Source: Clostridia bacterium
GTDB taxonomy: Bacteria; Bacillota; Peptococcia; DRI-13; UBA5745
Length of the DNA: 35,121 nucleotides
Reading direction: 5' to 3'
Assembly (NCBI GenBank): GCA_018434325.1
Contig: JAHDPO010000006.1
Location: 95,668 to 130,788, forward strand
Shown here: one piece after another, positions 6,702-17,611 of the stretch
Layout of the letters: each line of letters starts with the position of its first letter
How positions within the stretch are numbered: the first letter of the stretch is position 1
Program-made: the position numbers and the translations under genes
The notes under the pieces: model-generated
What the model was told of the DNA's origin: nothing
The model's database searches: none
Seen by the model: only the letters and a program-made list of their open reading frames with translations

Positions 6702-6717
6702 TGGTATGTTTTTTGCA
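6702..6717 (+). promoter_or_regulatory. Sigma-54-type (-24/-12) promoter for the TRAP/LarA operon
   Basis: TGGTATGTTTTTTGCA matches the consensus TGGCACG-N4-TTGCW at all specified positions except two (C4 and C6 are T). The invariant GG (6703-6704) and GC (6715-6716) have the required spacing. Transcription would start near 6727, about 40 bases before the TRAP gene. No sigma-54 activator gene is in the window. Confidence 0.65.
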
Positions 6718-6767: not shown

Positions 6768-8621
6768 ATGAAAGCTGCGATGAACAAGCTCTATTTTGGC
6801 CTATCGGTTATTTTTGTCTTTTTTCATCTGTACACCGCACTTTTTGGTGTATTGCCCGGTATAGGCCAGCGGGTGGTTCACCTCTGCCTGATTCTCAGCC
6901 TTTACTTTTTAAGTTCATTGGCAAAGGCAGACCGGCCCGGGATCGGCCGTCTTCTGGATTTTCTGTGCATTGCCGCCACGGTGGCCAGTTCAGCTTATAT
7001 TATGTCGATTGAGAAGATGCTGGATTTCCGAGCCGGCGTCATCTTGCCTGCCGATATCGTCTTCGGTCTGATGCTGGTAGTGGTAATGCTGATTGCTTGC
7101 TGGCGGACGGTAGGGTCTTCCCTGACTATCGTGGTGATTGTCTTTATCGCCTATGCCTTTGCCGGCCCTTATCTTCCGGGAATGCTGGCCCATAGCGGCA
7201 TGAGCATCGGCAAATTCTCCCACATTGCCGTTTTAACCACAGACGGCATATTCGGCACACCCTTATACGCTTCCGCCGCCTATGTGGTTCTTTTCATCAT
7301 TTTAGGAGCTCTTTTTAACGAAACCGGCGTAGGCGACTATTTTACCAGCCTTTCAACGGCTGCCTTCGGCAAAATGGTGGGCGGTCCGGCTAAAGTTGCC
7401 GTTATTGCCAGCGGCCTTTTCGGCTCCATCAACGGCAGTGCTATCGCCAATGTTTTGGGTACCGGTACTTTTACTATTCCCATGATGAAACGGGCGGGCT
7501 TCGAGCCTAAGGTTGCCGGCGCCGTGGAGGCCTCCGCTTCCGTAGGCGGCCAAATTATGCCTCCAATCATGGGCGCCACCGCCTTTTTGATGGCGGAGTT
7601 AATCGGCGTTTCTTATTATGAAGTGGCCAAGGCCGCCGCCATTCCCGCCATACTTTACTTTGTCTCAATCTTGATGACGGTGGATATCTACGCCAGAAAG
7701 ATGAAGCTGGGCGGCTCCGTAGACGCCGTACCTTCTCTCAACATCATGATCAGGAAGGCTTATCTGTTTTCGCCTTTAGTCTTATTGGTTATCCTGCTGG
7801 TGCAAAGAATGACCGTCACCCGGGCCGGTATCTACACCATCATCTTTACCTGTATTATTGTCATGCTCAATAAAGAGTCCCGAGTCGACTGGCCCCGTTT
7901 CGTCAAAATTATCGAAGGCTCCGTCTCCGGCGCTACTTCCGTAGCTATTTCCTGCGGCATCGTCGGCATCGTTATCGGCATGGTTATGGCTACGGGCTTA
8001 GGCTTCCGTCTTTCCGGCATCCTCATTGATTTAGCGGCCGGCCGCCTGCTGGTTCTGCTGGTTCTGACCATGATCTGCTCCATCATTCTGGGCATGGGCG
8101 TTCCTACCACAGCAGCTTACCTGGTTCTGGCGGTGCTGGTGGCGCCGGCCCTGATCAAAATGGGCATCTCCGCCATGGCTGCCCATATGTTTGTCCTGTA
8201 TTTCGGCATTGTTTCCGGCATTACTCCGCCAGTGGCCCTGGCCGCCTATACGGCTGCCGGCTTAGCCAAGTGCAGTCCCAATGAATGCGGCTGGCAGGCC
8301 TTCCGCTTAGCTTTGGCCGGTTTCATCATGCCTTTCATGTTTATTTATAATCCCTCTTTACTACTGATGGGTCATTGGACCATCATTGTACGGTCGGTTA
8401 TCACCTCTTTGATCGGCGTTTACTGCCTGGCCTCGGCTCTGGAGGGATTTACGATAAAGTGGCGCATCAATATGGTACAAAGGGTTATGCTGTTTGCTGC
8501 CGCCCTGCTCTTGATTGATAGCGGTCTGGTCACCGATCTGGCGGGCGCCGCCCTTATCATCGTCGTCTTGGGAGATCGGCTTATCCGCAGTAAAAAACAG
8601 CCGACAGAGGCCAGTATATAA
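6768..8621 (+). CDS. TRAP transporter fused permease (DctQM-type, TAXI system)
   Basis: Inner-membrane permease of a tripartite ATP-independent periplasmic (TRAP) transporter, driving uptake with an ion gradient. The 617 residues are strongly hydrophobic throughout. About 130 N-terminal residues with several membrane helices correspond to the small DctQ subunit; the rest is the large DctM subunit, with GGPAKVAVIASGLFGSINGS, EASASVGGQIMPPIMGATAF and GMGVPTTAAYLV, typical of the 4TM/12TM fusion class. The start at 6768 has GGAG upstream. First gene of the operon and partner of the TAXI binding protein, 53 bases downstream. The substrate cannot be read from sequence. Confidence 0.93.
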   Translation: MKAAMNKLYFGLSVIFVFFHLYTALFGVLPGIGQRVVHLCLILSLYFLSSLAKADRPGIGRLLDFLCIAATVASSAYIMSIEKMLDFRAGVILPADIVFGLMLVVVMLIACWRTVGSSLTIVVIVFIAYAFAGPYLPGMLAHSGMSIGKFSHIAVLTTDGIFGTPLYASAAYVVLFIILGALFNETGVGDYFTSLSTAAFGKMVGGPAKVAVIASGLFGSINGSAIANVLGTGTFTIPMMKRAGFEPKVAGAVEASASVGGQIMPPIMGATAFLMAELIGVSYYEVAKAAAIPAILYFVSILMTVDIYARKMKLGGSVDAVPSLNIMIRKAYLFSPLVLLVILLVQRMTVTRAGIYTIIFTCIIVMLNKESRVDWPRFVKIIEGSVSGATSVAISCGIVGIVIGMVMATGLGFRLSGILIDLAAGRLLVLLVLTMICSIILGMGVPTTAAYLVLAVLVAPALIKMGISAMAAHMFVLYFGIVSGITPPVALAAYTAAGLAKCSPNECGWQAFRLALAGFIMPFMFIYNPSLLLMGHWTIIVRSVITSLIGVYCLASALEGFTIKWRINMVQRVMLFAAALLLIDSGLVTDLAGAALIIVVLGDRLIRSKKQPTEASI

Positions 8622-8674: not shown

Positions 8675-9727
8675 ATGGGTAAATGGAAACAAAGCTCTTT
8701 GTTAATGGTTACGGTTTGCTTGATTATGTTGATGGCAGTCAGTCTGGCCGGCTGCGGCAGTTCCGGTGCAGTAACCTCCGGCACCACAGCTACTGCGCCT
8801 GCTGCCACCGGCGGCGGACAACAGAGTACCGAGCCTGAAGTAAAACGGGAAAGAATGACTATTGCTTTCGGCTCCGCATCCTCCACTTCCAACAACTACG
8901 TTATGGTTTCCGCTTTTGCCAACCTTTGGTCCCGTCAATATCCCAACTATATCGTTTCACCGGAGCTGACCACCGGCGGTGTGCAAAACGTCAGGGAAAT
9001 CAAAGCCGGCAACTGCCAGATGGGTATCTGCGCCGCCGACGTTATGTACTATGCCTATAATAATAGCCGGGAGTTTGAAGGGGAAAACATCGATAATATC
9101 CGTTATGTCACCGCCGGCAGCCACTGGACTTACAGCGGCGTAACTTTGGACCCCTCCATCAACAGCTTTGAAGATGTCAAGGGCAAGAGAGTGGCCATAT
9201 TAAACGGCACTTCTCTGCAGACTTACTGGCCGATTCTGCTGGAAGGCTACGGCTATACCGAAGCTGATTTTTCCAAGGTTATAGGACTGGCCAGCCAGGA
9301 TCTGGCTAATGCCCTCCTTGACGGCACCATAGACTACGCCTTGTTTACCACCACTATTCCCACCCCCGTTATTTCCGACATAGCTTTGTCCAAAAAAGTA
9401 AAAATGATCGGCATCAGCGATCAGGTCAGGGAGAAACTGATGAAGGAACATTCCTACATGATGGAATATACCATTCCTGCCGGTACCTACGGTATTGAAG
9501 CTGACGTTATCACCCTGGGCGGCAAAAACGTGGTTGTGGCCGACAAAGACCTGCCGGATCAGGCCGTCTATGATTTCCTGGAGGTCATTATGAACTCCAA
9601 TGAGGAACTGAAGCAGGCCGCTCCTATCGCTGCCGAGTACAACACGGAAAATTGCCTTCCTTTCATGAATCTGATCCCCATGCATCCCGGCGCCGAAAAA
9701 TGGTATAAGGACAACGGGATTATTTAA
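8675..9727 (+). CDS. TAXI-family TRAP solute-binding lipoprotein
   Basis: Extracytoplasmic receptor that delivers the solute to the fused TRAP permease. The 350-residue protein has a lipoprotein signal with lipobox LAGC (Cys27), as needed in a cell without an outer membrane. A low-complexity Gly/Ala/Thr linker follows, then the TAXI domain beginning at MTIAFGSASSTSNNY, with TTGGVQNVREIKAGNCQMG as a typical stretch. The start is preceded by GAGGAGG. TAXI receptors elsewhere bind small carboxylates such as 2-oxoglutarate or glutamate; the ligand here is unknown, though the neighbouring LarA homologue argues for a hydroxy acid or a derivative. Confidence 0.92.
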   Translation: MGKWKQSSLLMVTVCLIMLMAVSLAGCGSSGAVTSGTTATAPAATGGGQQSTEPEVKRERMTIAFGSASSTSNNYVMVSAFANLWSRQYPNYIVSPELTTGGVQNVREIKAGNCQMGICAADVMYYAYNNSREFEGENIDNIRYVTAGSHWTYSGVTLDPSINSFEDVKGKRVAILNGTSLQTYWPILLEGYGYTEADFSKVIGLASQDLANALLDGTIDYALFTTTIPTPVISDIALSKKVKMIGISDQVREKLMKEHSYMMEYTIPAGTYGIEADVITLGGKNVVVADKDLPDQAVYDFLEVIMNSNEELKQAAPIAAEYNTENCLPFMNLIPMHPGAEKWYKDNGII

Positions 9728-9747
9728 TTAAAACAGGGAGGTCTTTC

Positions 9748-11034
9748 ATGAAAGCTCTGGAACAGGTGCTTATACCTTACGGGGAAACCGCGCAAATACT
9801 GGAAACCCAAGGGCTACCCTTACTTGCGGTACTCACGCCACGCACCAAAGACCTGAACTACGGCGTTGCTCAAGAGGTTTTGGTGAGAGAAGCTTTGGCT
9901 GCCCCTATCAATAGTCTGGGTCTGGAACAGTTAGCCAAGGGTAAAAAAAATGCGGTGGTAATTATCAGCGACCATACCCGTCCTGTACCCAGCAAGCTGC
10001 TTTTGCCTCCTATGCTGGCGGCTTTACGCCAAGGCAATCCCGACATAGACATTACTTTATTGGTAGCTACCGGCTGTCACCGGGGGATCACCCCCGGTGA
10101 GCTGGAGGCTAAGCTGGGCCCGAAAATGGCCGTCCAGGAGAAAATTGTCATTCATGATTGTGACGACGAGACCAATATGGTCTTTCTGGGTATCTTACCT
10201 TCCGGGGCTCGGCTATCGATTAACCGGCTTGCCGCAGAAGCGGATCTGCTCTTAGCTGAAGGTTTTATTGAGCCCCATTTCTTTGCCGGCTTCTCCGGCG
10301 GCCGCAAAAGCGTGCTGCCGGGTATCTGTCAGCGAACCACCGTATTAGGCAACCATTGCAGCTCCTTCATCAGCCATCCTGCCGCCAGAGCCGGCGTATT
10401 GCAGGATAATCCTATTCATCAGGATATGCTGGCAGGGGCAGCTATGGCCGGTCTGGATTTTATTCTCAATGTAATCATCGATGAAAATAAACGGATAGCG
10501 GCCGCCTTTGCCGGGGACCCGGACCAAGCCCACGAAGCCGGCTGCCGCCTCTTGGCGGATCACTGTCTGGTAAAAGCTGTACCGGCAGATATCGTCATTA
10601 CCTCCAACGGCGGCTACCCCCTGGATCAGAATATCTATCAATGCGTCAAAAGCTTAACTGCCGCCGAGGCTACAGCCGCTCCCGGAGCGGTACTCATCCT
10701 TTGCGCCGCTTGCAGCGACGGTCACGGCAGCCAGCCGTTCTACGACGCCCTGACCCATTGCCGGAGCTTACCGGAACTGATGGAGCAGGTCCTGGCCACC
10801 TCCAGAGAAAACACTTTGCCGGATCAATGGCAATATCAGATCCTGTTGCGCATTTTACTCAAGCATGAAGTGATCTTTGTTACCGAGGCAAAGAATCGTC
10901 CCTTAGTTGAAGCCATGCATATGACCTATGCGTCGGCTCTGCAGGAAGCTCTATCCTTGGCCCGAGCCAAAAAAGGTTCCCAGGCGGGGGTAACGATTAT
11001 TCCCGACGGCGTTTCCATAATTGTTGACCAATGA
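9748..11034 (+). CDS. LarA-family nickel-dependent racemase/epimerase
   Basis: A 428-residue homologue of lactate racemase LarA, which uses the nickel-pincer (NPN) cofactor bound to a lysine to move a hydride at an alpha-hydroxy-acid carbon. Each catalytic residue of the L. plantarum enzyme appears here at an offset of +3: Asp75 and Arg78 in SDHTRPVP, His111 in ATGCHRG, His177 in EPHFF, cofactor lysine Lys187 in GFSGGRKS, His203 in GNH, and Gln298 and Lys301 in YQCVK. It should therefore be active. Substrate is open, since the family includes lactate, malate, phenyllactate and sugar-acid enzymes. The cofactor genes larB, larC and larE are not in the window. Start ATG 9748 with GGGAGG; 20 bases after the TAXI gene. 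Confidence 0.9.
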   Translation: MKALEQVLIPYGETAQILETQGLPLLAVLTPRTKDLNYGVAQEVLVREALAAPINSLGLEQLAKGKKNAVVIISDHTRPVPSKLLLPPMLAALRQGNPDIDITLLVATGCHRGITPGELEAKLGPKMAVQEKIVIHDCDDETNMVFLGILPSGARLSINRLAAEADLLLAEGFIEPHFFAGFSGGRKSVLPGICQRTTVLGNHCSSFISHPAARAGVLQDNPIHQDMLAGAAMAGLDFILNVIIDENKRIAAAFAGDPDQAHEAGCRLLADHCLVKAVPADIVITSNGGYPLDQNIYQCVKSLTAAEATAAPGAVLILCAACSDGHGSQPFYDALTHCRSLPELMEQVLATSRENTLPDQWQYQILLRILLKHEVIFVTEAKNRPLVEAMHMTYASALQEALSLARAKKGSQAGVTIIPDGVSIIVDQ

Positions 11035-11084: not shown

Positions 11085-12353
11085 ATGGACAATTCTCTAC
11101 TGATTCAAAAGGCCACCCTAATCGACGGCACCGGTAAGCCCCCAAAGGAAAATTGCACAATAGTCGTCAAGGACGGCAAATTCGCCCATATTTATGACTG
11201 CCCTGAGGGAGCCGATAAAGGCTTGCGGGAAAATCCCGATTTACCGGTGATCGATGCTGAGGGCTGCTATCTTTTGCCCGGCTTAATGGATTTGCATATT
11301 CATCTTGATGGCTACTCCCTTAAGGATCATATTATCGCCAAGTACTGGCATATGACTACCGCCAAGGCCCTGAAGCTGCTCCATGCGGTCAATAATGCTT
11401 CCCAGGTTCTGGATTGCGGCTTCACTACCCTGCGCTTTATGGGGATGTACCAATCCATGGATATCCATCTGCGGGAAGCCATCAATTTGGGTTTGGTTCG
11501 GGGGCCCCGCCTCCTCTGCTCGGGCCAGCAGGTAACCATGACCGCCGGCCATTGGGATTTATTTACGCCCAACTGGGCTCTTCGGGAGCCTGGCGAAACC
11601 TCCGACGGCATTGACGAGTGCTTGAAAGCGGTACGCCGCCTTGTTCGGGAGGGCGCCGATTTCGTAAAGATCCATTCCAGCGGCGGCTTAATGTCCCCCA
11701 GTGATAAGGTAGGCTGGCGCAACTACACTTACGAGGAAACCAAAGCCATCTGCGACGAGGCCCATGCCTTTGATATGCGGGTAGCTGCCCACGCCGGTGG
11801 CCGGGAGGGCATCAAGGTCTGTCTGGACGCCGGTGTCGATACTATCGAGCATGGCTATTATTTAGGAGAAAACGACGACCTGATCGAGCAAATGATAAAA
11901 CAGGGCGCCTTCCTGATCCCTACTGTAGCCGTTACCGATGCCTGTAAAAACCATGCTGCCAGCACAGGGGCCCCCGCCGGCACCATCGCTAAAGGACAGG
12001 CTGCCTATGAAGCCCACCAAAACAGTATTTATAAAGCCTATAAAGCCGGCGTCAAAATGGGCAGCGCCAGCGACGCTTACAATCTGTTGAAATGCTGGGA
12101 TCTGGGCAGAGAATTTGCCATTCTGGAAAGAGTGGGAATTAAGCCTCTGGACATTATAAAATTTGCCACCCTGGGATCCGCCGACGCCATTGGCCGCATG
12201 AATGAACTGGGCAGCATTGAAGAAGGCAAAATTGCCGATCTGATCTTATTGAACTGCAATCCTTTGGAAAACATGGATAAGCTGGGCTCCGACGCCGCTA
12301 CTCCCTTGGTTGTCCTGGCCGGGAAAGTGGTGAAAAATAATTTGGAGCAATGA
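11085..12353 (+). CDS. Metal-dependent amidohydrolase, catalytically complete
   Basis: A 422-residue cytosolic amidohydrolase-superfamily member resembling the imidazolonepropionase/Xaa-Pro-dipeptidase-like group. A small N-terminal beta domain ends at PGLMD and the TIM barrel follows. All metal-site residues are visible: His71 and His73 (DLHIHL), Lys195, presumably carboxylated (ADFVKIHSSGG), His236 (AAHAGG), His256 (TIEHGYY) and Asp330 (SASDAYN). It should hydrolyse a cyclic or linear amide or ester; the substrate is not evident. It could release a hydroxy acid or amino acid from an imported derivative for the LarA homologue, which is inference from the operon. GGCGG lies upstream of the ATG. 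The next gene is a paralogue 9 bases away. Confidence 0.9.
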   Translation: MDNSLLIQKATLIDGTGKPPKENCTIVVKDGKFAHIYDCPEGADKGLRENPDLPVIDAEGCYLLPGLMDLHIHLDGYSLKDHIIAKYWHMTTAKALKLLHAVNNASQVLDCGFTTLRFMGMYQSMDIHLREAINLGLVRGPRLLCSGQQVTMTAGHWDLFTPNWALREPGETSDGIDECLKAVRRLVREGADFVKIHSSGGLMSPSDKVGWRNYTYEETKAICDEAHAFDMRVAAHAGGREGIKVCLDAGVDTIEHGYYLGENDDLIEQMIKQGAFLIPTVAVTDACKNHAASTGAPAGTIAKGQAAYEAHQNSIYKAYKAGVKMGSASDAYNLLKCWDLGREFAILERVGIKPLDIIKFATLGSADAIGRMNELGSIEEGKIADLILLNCNPLENMDKLGSDAATPLVVLAGKVVKNNLEQ

Positions 12354-12362
12354 GGTGCGGCC

Positions 12363-13631
12363 ATGAGTCAGCGAATCCGCATCAAACAAGTAACGGTAAT
12401 CGACGGACTGGGCAATCCCCCCCTGCCCGATTGTACCGTTATCATCGAGAATCAACGAATCCAAGGCCTTTGGCAAGGCAATCAAGCGCTTTCAGCCGAT
12501 AAATCAGCCGATAAACCAACGGAGCTGGTCATCGACGGCAAGAACAAATATTTACTGCCGGGCTTGATGGATATGCAGATTTTCCCCCATGCCTACGCTT
12601 TGGCGGAACCTACCCACATCAATTTGTGGCACCGCAGCAATGCTAATGAAATGAAAATGCTCCACGCCGTAAAAAACCTTTCTTTCCTTTTGGATAGCGG
12701 ATATACTACTATCCGGGCTTTCGGCATGCCCGGCTCACTGGATATCCATCTGCGGGAGGCGGTCAGTTTAGGCCTGATCCGCGGTCCCCGGCTCTTTTGT
12801 TCCGGCCAGCATCTCAGCCCCACCGGCGGCCACGCCGAGGAAATGTATGGCTCCCCCTTCGGTCTGCGGGAACCGGGCCAAACGGTGGACGGCGTCACGG
12901 AATGTCTGAAGGCGGTACGCACAAGGCTGCGAGAGGGCGCCGATTTTATTATGATCCACTGCGGCGGCGGTATTATGGGCAAGGATAAGATGTATTGGCG
13001 GAATTTTACACCGGCGGAAATGCAGGCTATTGTTCAGGAGGCCCATGCCTTTGATATGCTGGCTTCGGCCCACGTAGGCTCCGGTCTTAGTGTAAAAACC
13101 GCTCTTGATGCCGGTGTGGATATTATCGAGCAAGGCTACTGTCTGGACGATCAACACATTGCCCAAATGAAGGAGCAAGGAACCCGTTATGTACCCACCC
13201 TGGCCGTCACCTATGCTTGTGTGGCCCATGCCGAGAAAACCGGTATTTCCCGGCAAGCTCTTTACAAAGGACAGCGGGCTTGGGAAACTCACCAGGCCAG
13301 CGTCCGCAAGGCCTACAAAGCCGGGGTCAAACTGGCCAGCGGCAGCAATTGTTTCAACTTGATCCGGGTGGAATCGGCCAGGACGGAATTTCCTTTATTG
13401 GCCGGTGTGGGTATTCCGGCTCTGGAAATAATTCGTCTGGCTACCTCGGCGGCGGCAGAAGCCCTCCGCTTCGGCAGTCAATGCGGCAGCATTACGCCGG
13501 GCAAGCTGGCGGATCTGATCTTGCTGACAGCAGATCCCCTGCAGAACATTGCAGTGCTGGGAGACCCGGCCCTGACGTCACTGGTTATTAAAGAAGGAAA
13601 GATTGTCAAGCAGAGCAAAGGCTCCCCATAA
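12363..13631 (+). CDS. Amidohydrolase-fold paralogue lacking its metal site (predicted pseudoenzyme)
   Basis: A 422-residue paralogue of the preceding gene, the same length and collinear throughout. Five of the six metal-site residues are replaced: the HxH pair is Gln72 and Phe74 (MDMQIFPH), the lysine is Met197 (ADFIMIHCGGG), the second barrel histidine is Gln257 (IIEQGYC) and the aspartate is Asn329 (SGSNCFN). Only His237 (SAHVGSG) remains. The frame is open and the rest is well conserved, so this is a maintained protein, not a decaying copy. It may form a hetero-oligomer with its neighbour, bind the ligand, or catalyse something metal-free. The start overlaps the coupling zone of the upstream stop (GAGGTG then ATG), and a terminator follows at 13640. 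Confidence 0.9.
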   Translation: MSQRIRIKQVTVIDGLGNPPLPDCTVIIENQRIQGLWQGNQALSADKSADKPTELVIDGKNKYLLPGLMDMQIFPHAYALAEPTHINLWHRSNANEMKMLHAVKNLSFLLDSGYTTIRAFGMPGSLDIHLREAVSLGLIRGPRLFCSGQHLSPTGGHAEEMYGSPFGLREPGQTVDGVTECLKAVRTRLREGADFIMIHCGGGIMGKDKMYWRNFTPAEMQAIVQEAHAFDMLASAHVGSGLSVKTALDAGVDIIEQGYCLDDQHIAQMKEQGTRYVPTLAVTYACVAHAEKTGISRQALYKGQRAWETHQASVRKAYKAGVKLASGSNCFNLIRVESARTEFPLLAGVGIPALEIIRLATSAAAEALRFGSQCGSITPGKLADLILLTADPLQNIAVLGDPALTSLVIKEGKIVKQSKGSP

Positions 13632-13639
13632 GTAAAAAT

Positions 13640-13661
13640 GCTGCCGCGAATTTGCGGCAGC
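13640..13661. terminator. Bidirectional terminator between the TRAP/LarA operon and the ABC operon
   Basis: GCTGCCGC (13640-13647) pairs perfectly with GCGGCAGC (13654-13661) around a 6-base loop. The minus-strand side is followed by ATTTTTACTT, the plus side by ACCTTTATA, so it works better for the ABC operon. Confidence 0.8.
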
Positions 13662-13694
13662 ACCTTTATATACGCCCGGCAGTGTGTTCTAACC

Positions 13695-16696: not shown

Positions 16697-17611
16697 TCAC
16701 AAAAGGATATCCAAATACCGTTTCAACCGCTCTTCTAAATATTCCACCAGCATTTCCACCATCGGTGCGGCGGATTTGTCTTTATAGTAACGGTCAAAGC
16801 AGGTATAGTACCGTTTTCTGTCTGAGAATTTAATATCAATCGGTGGGTACCCTTGCTGCATCAGCATAAGATTAAGAATCAGTCTGCCGGTGCGCCCATT
16901 GCCATCGATAAATGGATGAATCCCCTCAAAATCCAAATGAAAGAGAGCGGCATTCTCAATGGGATGACGCTTTGTTTCTTTTTGCCCGGCAATAAGCTGT
17001 TCCATCTGAACAGGCACCAAATATGGCTGCGGCGGCTCATTGTATGCACCCATAATAGCGACAGGTATCCGGCGATACACGCCTTTGTCATCCGGTCTGT
17101 TCATCAGCACCAGGGAATGAATATCCTTGATCATTTTTTCTGAAATTGTAATATTGTCCGTTACAAGCCACTGAACATATAAAAAAGCGTCCCGATGCCC
17201 AACAGCCTCCAGATGATCTTTTAACGGTTTTTTGTCTATGGTAACACCTTCCAACACCAAGGCTGTTTCCCTGAGAGTGAGCGTATTCCCTTCAATGGCG
17301 TTAGAGTTGTAGGTGAATTCAATCAGAAATTCTTCCCGCAACTTTTCCAGCTCGCCTTGGGTTAGCGGGCGGCGTTTCTTCAGTTCAGATTTCAAAGCAT
17401 CTACACGAGCAAAGGAAGCAGAATACTCTTGTGGAATCACTTTGCCGCGCAAACCACGCCCGTCAGCCGGTTTTACGGCATCAGCAGGGATACGATAGGA
17501 ACGTCCTTCACGGATTGTACCGGGAATCCTTCCTTGCTCACAGAGCAACCTTACACGCCGATCAGACAAATCCCATTGTGCTGCGGCCTTTTGTACACTG
17601 ATATATTCCAT
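16697..17611 (-). CDS. Fic-family AMP-transferase with N-terminal helix-turn-helix
   Basis: A 304-residue protein expected to transfer AMP from ATP to a target protein. An N-terminal MerR/excisionase-like helix-turn-helix (about 1-45, ISVQKAAAQWDLSDRRVRLL) precedes the Fic domain. The catalytic motif HPFIDGNGR is complete at 232-240. The inhibitory helix motif SNAIEG at 103-108 fits the intrinsic [S/T]xxxE[G/N] type, so the enzyme is probably self-inhibited and needs no separate antitoxin. It stands alone with its own promoter in AT-rich flanks, consistent with acquisition as a single cassette. Target unknown. Confidence 0.9.
   Translation of the reverse strand: MEYISVQKAAAQWDLSDRRVRLLCEQGRIPGTIREGRSYRIPADAVKPADGRGLRGKVIPQEYSASFARVDALKSELKKRRPLTQGELEKLREEFLIEFTYNSNAIEGNTLTLRETALVLEGVTIDKKPLKDHLEAVGHRDAFLYVQWLVTDNITISEKMIKDIHSLVLMNRPDDKGVYRRIPVAIMGAYNEPPQPYLVPVQMEQLIAGQKETKRHPIENAALFHLDFEGIHPFIDGNGRTGRLILNLMLMQQGYPPIDIKFSDRKRYYTCFDRYYKDKSAAPMVEMLVEYLEERLKRYLDILL

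What the first reader, a model, noticed from the sequence alone, without database searches (positions are those of the whole stretch)
11085..13631. Tandem amidohydrolase pair: one complete enzyme, one without a metal site
The two 422-residue products are collinear paralogues. The first has His71, His73, Lys195, His236, His256 and Asp330; the second has Gln72, Phe74, Met197, His237, Gln257 and Asn329. Five of six ligands have changed at single codons (12576, 12582, 12951, 13131, 13347) while the rest is maintained. This suggests selection for a non-hydrolytic role: a regulatory or structural partner in a hetero-oligomer, a ligand sensor, or a metal-independent reaction.
Basis: partly seen in the sequence, partly recalled or inferred. 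Interest (0 to 1): 0.76.

Follow-up and report, generated by a model that had tools for sequence, protein, structure and literature searches.

The report
Live and dead amidohydrolase gene pair
Two neighbouring bacterial genes encode sister amide-cutting enzymes, one complete and one in which just the metal-holding residues have been replaced; the second looks like a kept, non-cutting partner protein and not a decayed gene, but no close relative of it was found to prove that.

Summary
Genes A (11085-12353) and B (12363-13631) encode 48%-identical, 422-aa amidohydrolases of the prolidase/ochratoxinase type. A has the full binuclear metal set (H71, H73, K195, H236, H256, D330); B has Q72, F74, M197, H237, Q257, N329. 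The loss is targeted: of 24 columns at least 90% conserved among 31 homologues (each pair under 50% identical), B departs at exactly five, all metal ligands (p about 1e-4). Outside the metal site B keeps the family consensus as well as A does (67 against 65 of 84 columns). B's predicted fold matches solved metal enzymes (Z 52), the frame is intact, it has a ribosome site, lies 9 bp after A, and is followed by a terminator. So B is very probably a retained pseudoenzyme. The likeliest mechanism is a non-catalytic partner of A in a mixed oligomer; binding was not tested. A and B end a five-gene operon: TRAP-TAXI transporter, LarA-type racemase, A, B. Verdict: a new variant of a known kind (live enzyme plus dead paralogue).

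The parts
6702..6717 (+). sigma-54 type (-24/-12) promoter-like site TGGTATGTTTTTTGCA before the operon
   Evidence: exact match to TGGYAYGNNNNTTGCW; 0.02 exact matches expected in the window. A consensus match, not proof of use
6768..8621 (+). TRAP transporter fused permease
   Evidence: TIGR02123, 614 bits, cut-off 321; DctM
8675..9727 (+). TAXI-family TRAP solute-binding protein
   Evidence: TIGR02122, 189 bits, cut-off 84
9748..11034 (+). LarA-type nickel-dependent 2-hydroxyacid racemase
   Evidence: NF033504, 576 bits, cut-off 460; H111, H177, K187, H203 present; the exact substrate is not known
11085..12353 (+). gene A: amidohydrolase with complete binuclear metal site (H71, H73, K195, H236, H256, D330)
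   Evidence: fold
12363..13631 (+). gene B: paralogue without the metal site (Q72, F74, M197, H237, Q257, N329), proposed pseudoenzyme
   Evidence: fold
13639..13662 (+). hairpin closing the operon (terminator-like; 10 pairs, 7 of them G-C, 7 bases after the stop codon of B)
   Evidence: -20.8 kcal/mol, z -3.5; the T tract is short

Best explanation
Gene B is a retained pseudoenzyme: an old duplicate of A that kept the whole fold of the prolidase-type amidohydrolases, including the family-conserved histidines H157 and H237, but gave up the two-metal centre. It most likely works as a non-catalytic partner of A in a mixed oligomer. Known relatives form homo-octamers, and B would fill some of those places, stabilising A or tuning it through its own metal-free pocket. 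A would be the hydrolase, cutting an N-acyl or peptide-like amide that the TRAP-TAXI transporter brings in, with LarA racemising a 2-hydroxyacid of the same pathway. Shown here: selective ligand loss, preserved fold, operon anatomy. Inferred: binding to A, regulation, substrate. Retained function of some kind is about 90% likely; the partner role about 50%.
For: B departs from the family at five of the 24 columns conserved at 90% or more, all metal ligands. With the ligand columns left out B keeps 67 of 84 well-conserved columns, A 65 of 84, and relative-rate tests against six outgroups are not significant in five. AlphaFold2 model of B has mean pLDDT 87.7, and VIA-align Z to metal enzyme 9kov is 52.3 (1.8 A over 373 residues), the same as for A. 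A and B are sisters (SH-aLRT 97 and 100) on long branches, B's own being 0.9-1.1 changes per column with no stop or frameshift. B lies 9 bp after A with its own Shine-Dalgarno-like sequence, host-like codon use and a terminator-like hairpin after it. The genome holds no other member of the family. Ochratoxinase, a solved relative, is a D4 homo-octamer (PMC11342369), and several other relatives are deposited with 8 chains of one sequence. Dead paralogues that activate their live partner are known: trypanosomatid AdoMetDC and deoxyhypusine synthase (PMC5201418, PMC3663545), and the inactive DHOase-like chain required by Pseudomonas ATCase (PMC7053772).
Against: No physical or functional link between A and B was tested. 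The pair was found in one genome only, so its persistence is unproven, and the ligand loss could be recent on B's long branch. Loops on the pocket face are less alike (39%) than the rest (50%), and the N-terminal 61 residues are 25% alike, so a shared interface or shared ligand is not evident from conservation. B's branch is somewhat longer than A's.
Confidence: 0.5

Rival explanations
1. B is a free-standing metal-free enzyme or ligand-binding protein of the same pathway, using the barrel pocket without metals (for example a lyase, isomerase or sensor), and does not assemble with A.
For: Pocket-face loops of A and B differ more than the rest (39% against 50% identity), as expected if B binds something else. 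H157 and H237 are kept. The amidohydrolase superfamily has at least one metal-independent member, LigI (from memory, not tested here).
Against: No metal-free catalytic set can be named from the sequence. B has no added domain. The gene sits directly behind its intact paralogue.
Confidence: 0.2
2. The metal site was rebuilt: B holds a single or different metal through new ligands such as the cysteines C200, C260, C330 and the histidines H76, H199, H237.
For: C200, C260 and C330 lie one to three residues after the lost ligands, are absent from A, and are rare or absent at these columns in the family (2, at most 1 and 5 of 76 rows). H76 lies two residues after F74.
Against: Side-chain geometry was not checked (no coordinates). 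H199 is also in A, so it is not a B novelty. Cysteines at three positions can arise without a site.
Confidence: 0.1
3. B competes with or titrates something else: a dominant-negative subunit that lowers A's activity, or a moonlighting regulator of the operon.
For: Inhibitory pseudoenzymes are known in general (PMC10211241). No dedicated regulator gene was recognised beside the operon among the proteins scanned.
Against: B has no DNA-binding or extra domain. An exact sigma-54 promoter match suggests control by an unlinked activator.
Confidence: 0.08
4. B is a decaying duplicate on its way to a pseudogene.
For: Five of six ligands are gone; B's branch is longer than A's (0.91-1.13 against 0.58-0.76); found in one genome only.
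Against: All losses at the most conserved columns are metal ligands; elsewhere B is as conserved as A. Intact frame, host-like codon use, ribosome site, confident fold.
Confidence: 0.07

Closest known systems
Prolidase/ochratoxinase-type amidohydrolases (3mtw Cc2672, 2qs8, 3be7, 3mkv, 9kov, ADH3, A. niger ochratoxinase)
   Same: Fold, length and end-to-end alignment for both proteins; A also has the metal ligands
   Different: B lacks five of the six ligands; the known enzymes are active alone, and no tandem live/dead pair is described in what was read
Pseudo-dihydroorotase of class A2 ATCases (Pseudomonas PyrX/pDHO; PMC7053772)
   Same: Same superfamily; metal site lost, fold kept, proposed role as structural or regulatory partner
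   Different: Its partner is an unrelated enzyme (ATCase); B's neighbour is its own live paralogue. Different subfamily
Trypanosomatid prozymes (AdoMetDC, deoxyhypusine synthase; PMC5201418, PMC3663545)
   Same: Dead paralogue beside a live one; works-like model for activation in a mixed oligomer
   Different: Unrelated folds, eukaryotes, not an operon; activation shown there, not here
Mycolicibacterium/Mycobacterium homologues with E-x-N in place of H-x-H (L060-L064)
   Same: Same family; part of the metal site replaced, identically in five records
   Different: Just the HxH half is changed, K, H, H, D are kept; no paralogue in the fetched flanks; beside Rieske oxygenase and acyl-CoA dehydrogenase genes (L060)

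Membership tests
Prolidase-type metal-dependent amidohydrolases (Amidohydro_1, binuclear subtype I) | amidohydrolase barrel plus beta-sandwich fold, whole length | tested here: met
   A and B: Pfam above cut-off; Z 52.7 and 52.3 to 9kov
Prolidase-type metal-dependent amidohydrolases (Amidohydro_1, binuclear subtype I) | HxH, Lys, His, His, Asp metal ligands, gene A | tested here: met
   H71, H73, K195, H236, H256, D330
Prolidase-type metal-dependent amidohydrolases (Amidohydro_1, binuclear subtype I) | HxH, Lys, His, His, Asp metal ligands, gene B | tested here: not met
   Q72, F74, M197, H237, Q257, N329: B is filed by fold, not as a metal enzyme
Xaa-Pro dipeptidase NF051886 (equivalog) | score above the curated cut-off of 500 | tested here: not met
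   A 268.9, B 213.9 bits: relatives, not members
Prolidase-type amidohydrolases | homo-octamer and amide hydrolysis | not testable with these tools
   octamer known for ochratoxinase (PMC11342369)
Live enzyme plus dead activating paralogue (prozyme-type pair) | paralogue in the same genome with its catalytic residues replaced and its fold kept | tested here: met
Live enzyme plus dead activating paralogue (prozyme-type pair) | physical complex with, and activation of, the live partner | not testable with these tools
   no complex prediction available
Live enzyme plus dead activating paralogue (prozyme-type pair) | pair and replacements conserved across species | tested here: inconclusive
   no orthologue found to compare
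Pseudogene | stops, frameshifts or loss spread over all conserved positions | tested here: not met
   intact frame; loss confined to ligands among the most conserved columns
Nickel-dependent lactate racemase LarA (neighbour, 9748-11034) | NF033504 above cut-off, with the His/Lys residues of the active site | tested here: met
   576 bits against 460; H111, H177, K187, H203 (equivalence to the L. plantarum residues is from memory)

The most novel reading that the evidence does not exclude
B is a metal-free amidohydrolase-fold enzyme or sensor with a new pocket (possibly built on the B-only cysteines C200, C260, C330 with H237), assembled with A into an alternating live/dead oligomer that couples hydrolysis to a bound pathway metabolite.
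Probability: 0.15. Interest if true: 0.72.

Novelty: new variant of a known kind. Interest (0 to 1): 0.45.

Why it matters
If B is a kept, metal-free partner of A, it would be a bacterial prozyme-like pair inside the prolidase/ochratoxinase group, which has many solved structures. It would show a metallohydrolase held under selection for its shape or pocket alone, and would give a clean two-gene system to test how a dead subunit tunes a live one. In the searched sample no other member of the family has lost its metal site so completely, although Mycolicibacterium relatives have lost part of it.

Tried and rejected
Orthologues of B were sought in two genome-contig scans (B alone: none; A+B: 21 loci, at most 36% identity), eleven whole-genome searches with B or the A+B alignment, one with LarA, plasmids (best rows 31-34% identity) and viral contigs (none). 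All give distant, nearly all metal-complete, unpaired homologues. Two of these calls covered just 1 and 13 genomes (54, 70). One search used a cut-off under which nothing rang, so it speaks only against close relatives. A better-conserved pocket face shared by A and B was looked for and not found. dN/dS between A and B (0.45/1.79) was dropped as evidence because synonymous sites are saturated. Decay was rejected for the focused pattern of loss. Sequencing error was rejected because five separate in-frame replacements in an otherwise intact gene are not what errors look like. The careful tree was not finished; two quick trees agree on the A+B clade. Paper searches for amidohydrolase pseudoenzymes returned nothing specific beyond the ATCase case.

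Full report
WHAT WAS CHECKED. The window holds two adjacent 422-codon genes on the + strand, A (11085-12353) and B (12363-13631), which align end to end at 48% identity. All twelve residues and all codon positions in the finding were re-read and are correct. A has the six ligands of a binuclear amidohydrolase; B has Q, F, M, H, Q, N in their place.

FAMILY. Both proteins are Amidohydro_1. Their nearest NCBIfam model is Xaa-Pro dipeptidase NF051886, far under its cut-off for both. The nearest solved structures are 9kov, 2qs8, 3mtw, 3be7, 3feq, 3mkv, the ADH3-type ochratoxin amidohydrolases and fungal ochratoxinase. AlphaFold2 models, made with a 15-row alignment, have mean pLDDT 89.1 (A) and 87.7 (B); VIA-align Z to 9kov is 52.7 and 52.3. 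So B has the complete fold of the metal enzymes. In the relatives one metal is held by the HxH pair and an Asp, the other by two His, with a carboxylated Lys bridging them; ADH3 mutants of metal ligands are reported as wholly inactive; ochratoxinase is a D4 homo-octamer; relatives cut dipeptides and N-acyl-amino acids (PMC11342369).

IS THE LOSS SELECTIVE? In the aligned set 85 of 91 rows (A among them; some loci are entered twice) read HHKHHD, five Mycolicibacterium/Mycobacterium rows read ENKHHD, and B alone reads QFMHQN. With homologues thinned to 31 under 50% identity, B departs at five of the 24 columns conserved at 90% or more, and all five are metal ligands (p 1.4e-4; 1e-4 to 7e-4 for cut-offs of 70-90%, 3e-3 at 95%). 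With the ligand columns left out, B keeps the consensus at 67 of 84 columns conserved at 70% or more, A at 65 of 84; relative-rate tests show no significant difference for five of six outgroups. This is the pattern of a protein kept for something other than metal chemistry.

AGE AND RECURRENCE. A and B are sisters with SH-aLRT 97 and 100 in two quick trees, on long branches (A 0.58-0.76, B 0.91-1.13 changes per column). The duplication is therefore old, but when the ligands were lost along B's branch cannot be said. The genome holds no further member of the family. No orthologue of either gene was found in the four other genomes of the genus, four further genomes of the family, or the 25 of the order and 46 of the class (own genome counted). 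None was found in 398 genomes across the phylum, 399 of another class of that phylum, 398 and 247 of two other phyla, plasmids or viral contigs. The best homologues elsewhere reach about 37% identity. The operon's LarA likewise has matches of 52% identity at most in the order, which suggests that the whole operon was acquired, or has been lost in relatives; this is an inference.

SURROUNDINGS. The operon runs TRAP fused permease (6768), TAXI solute-binding protein (8675), LarA-type racemase (9748), A, B, with gaps of 53, 20, 50 and 9 bp and a Shine-Dalgarno-like sequence before each gene. A strong hairpin directly follows B. An exact sigma-54 -24/-12 match ends 50 bp before the first gene; 0.02 such matches are expected in the window. 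A sister genome has another LarA operon with a TRAP transporter and a different amide hydrolase, of M20 type (L107). That makes 'import, hydrolyse an amide, racemise a 2-hydroxyacid' a reasonable guess. N-lactoyl or other 2-hydroxyacyl amino acids would fit, but this is speculation, and PMC7583248 warns that context does not always reveal LarA substrates. Flanking genes (FtsH, TilS, CTP synthase, ArgS, YpeB) are chromosomal core genes of a spore-forming Firmicute type (the last step is inference).

MECHANISM. Best supported: A is the hydrolase and B a metal-free partner in the same oligomer. Shown: targeted ligand loss, retained fold, operon anatomy. Inferred: binding, regulation, substrate. 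The closest working models are the trypanosomatid prozymes (PMC5201418, PMC3663545) and, within the same superfamily, the pseudo-dihydroorotase that is inactive yet required for Pseudomonas ATCase (PMC7053772). Against B being a simple copy of A's pocket: the pocket-face loops are less alike (39%) than the rest (50%), so B may bind another ligand. B also has three cysteines that A lacks next to lost ligands (C200, C260, C330), which leaves open a rebuilt site. Without coordinates or a complex prediction these cannot be separated.

VERDICT. Selection for a role without the metal is well supported (about 90%), the hetero-oligomer is plausible but untested (about 50%), decay is unlikely (about 7%). 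As a kind it is a live enzyme with a dead paralogue, new in this subfamily as far as the sample goes; interest is moderate because recurrence could not be shown.

Noticed in passing
L060-L064 (Mycolicibacterium/Mycobacterium records): Homologues in five records share E-x-N in place of the H-x-H metal motif while K, H, H, D are kept: an independent, conserved partial loss of the metal site in the same family.
   Followed up: partly
L107:7371-14277 (sister genome G004, contig 22): Another LarA operon with a TRAP transporter, an M20-type amidohydrolase and a GntR/FCD regulator: same theme of TRAP, racemase and amide hydrolase with an unrelated hydrolase.
   Followed up: partly
window 6702-6717 (+): Exact sigma-54 -24/-12 promoter match before the operon; 0.02 expected in the window.
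   Followed up: partly
L065:7659-9131 and 9077-10498 (+): A second tandem pair of this family, in an uncultured gammaproteobacterium, 25% identical, both with the complete metal set.
   Followed up: no
window 12363-13631, codons 200, 260 and 330: Three cysteines absent from A lie one to three residues after lost metal ligands of B; unexplained.
   Followed up: no
window 16697-17611 (-): Fic-domain protein with an N-terminal HTH_17/excisionase-like domain, beside an ABC transporter set with a TrpX-like binding protein.
   Followed up: no
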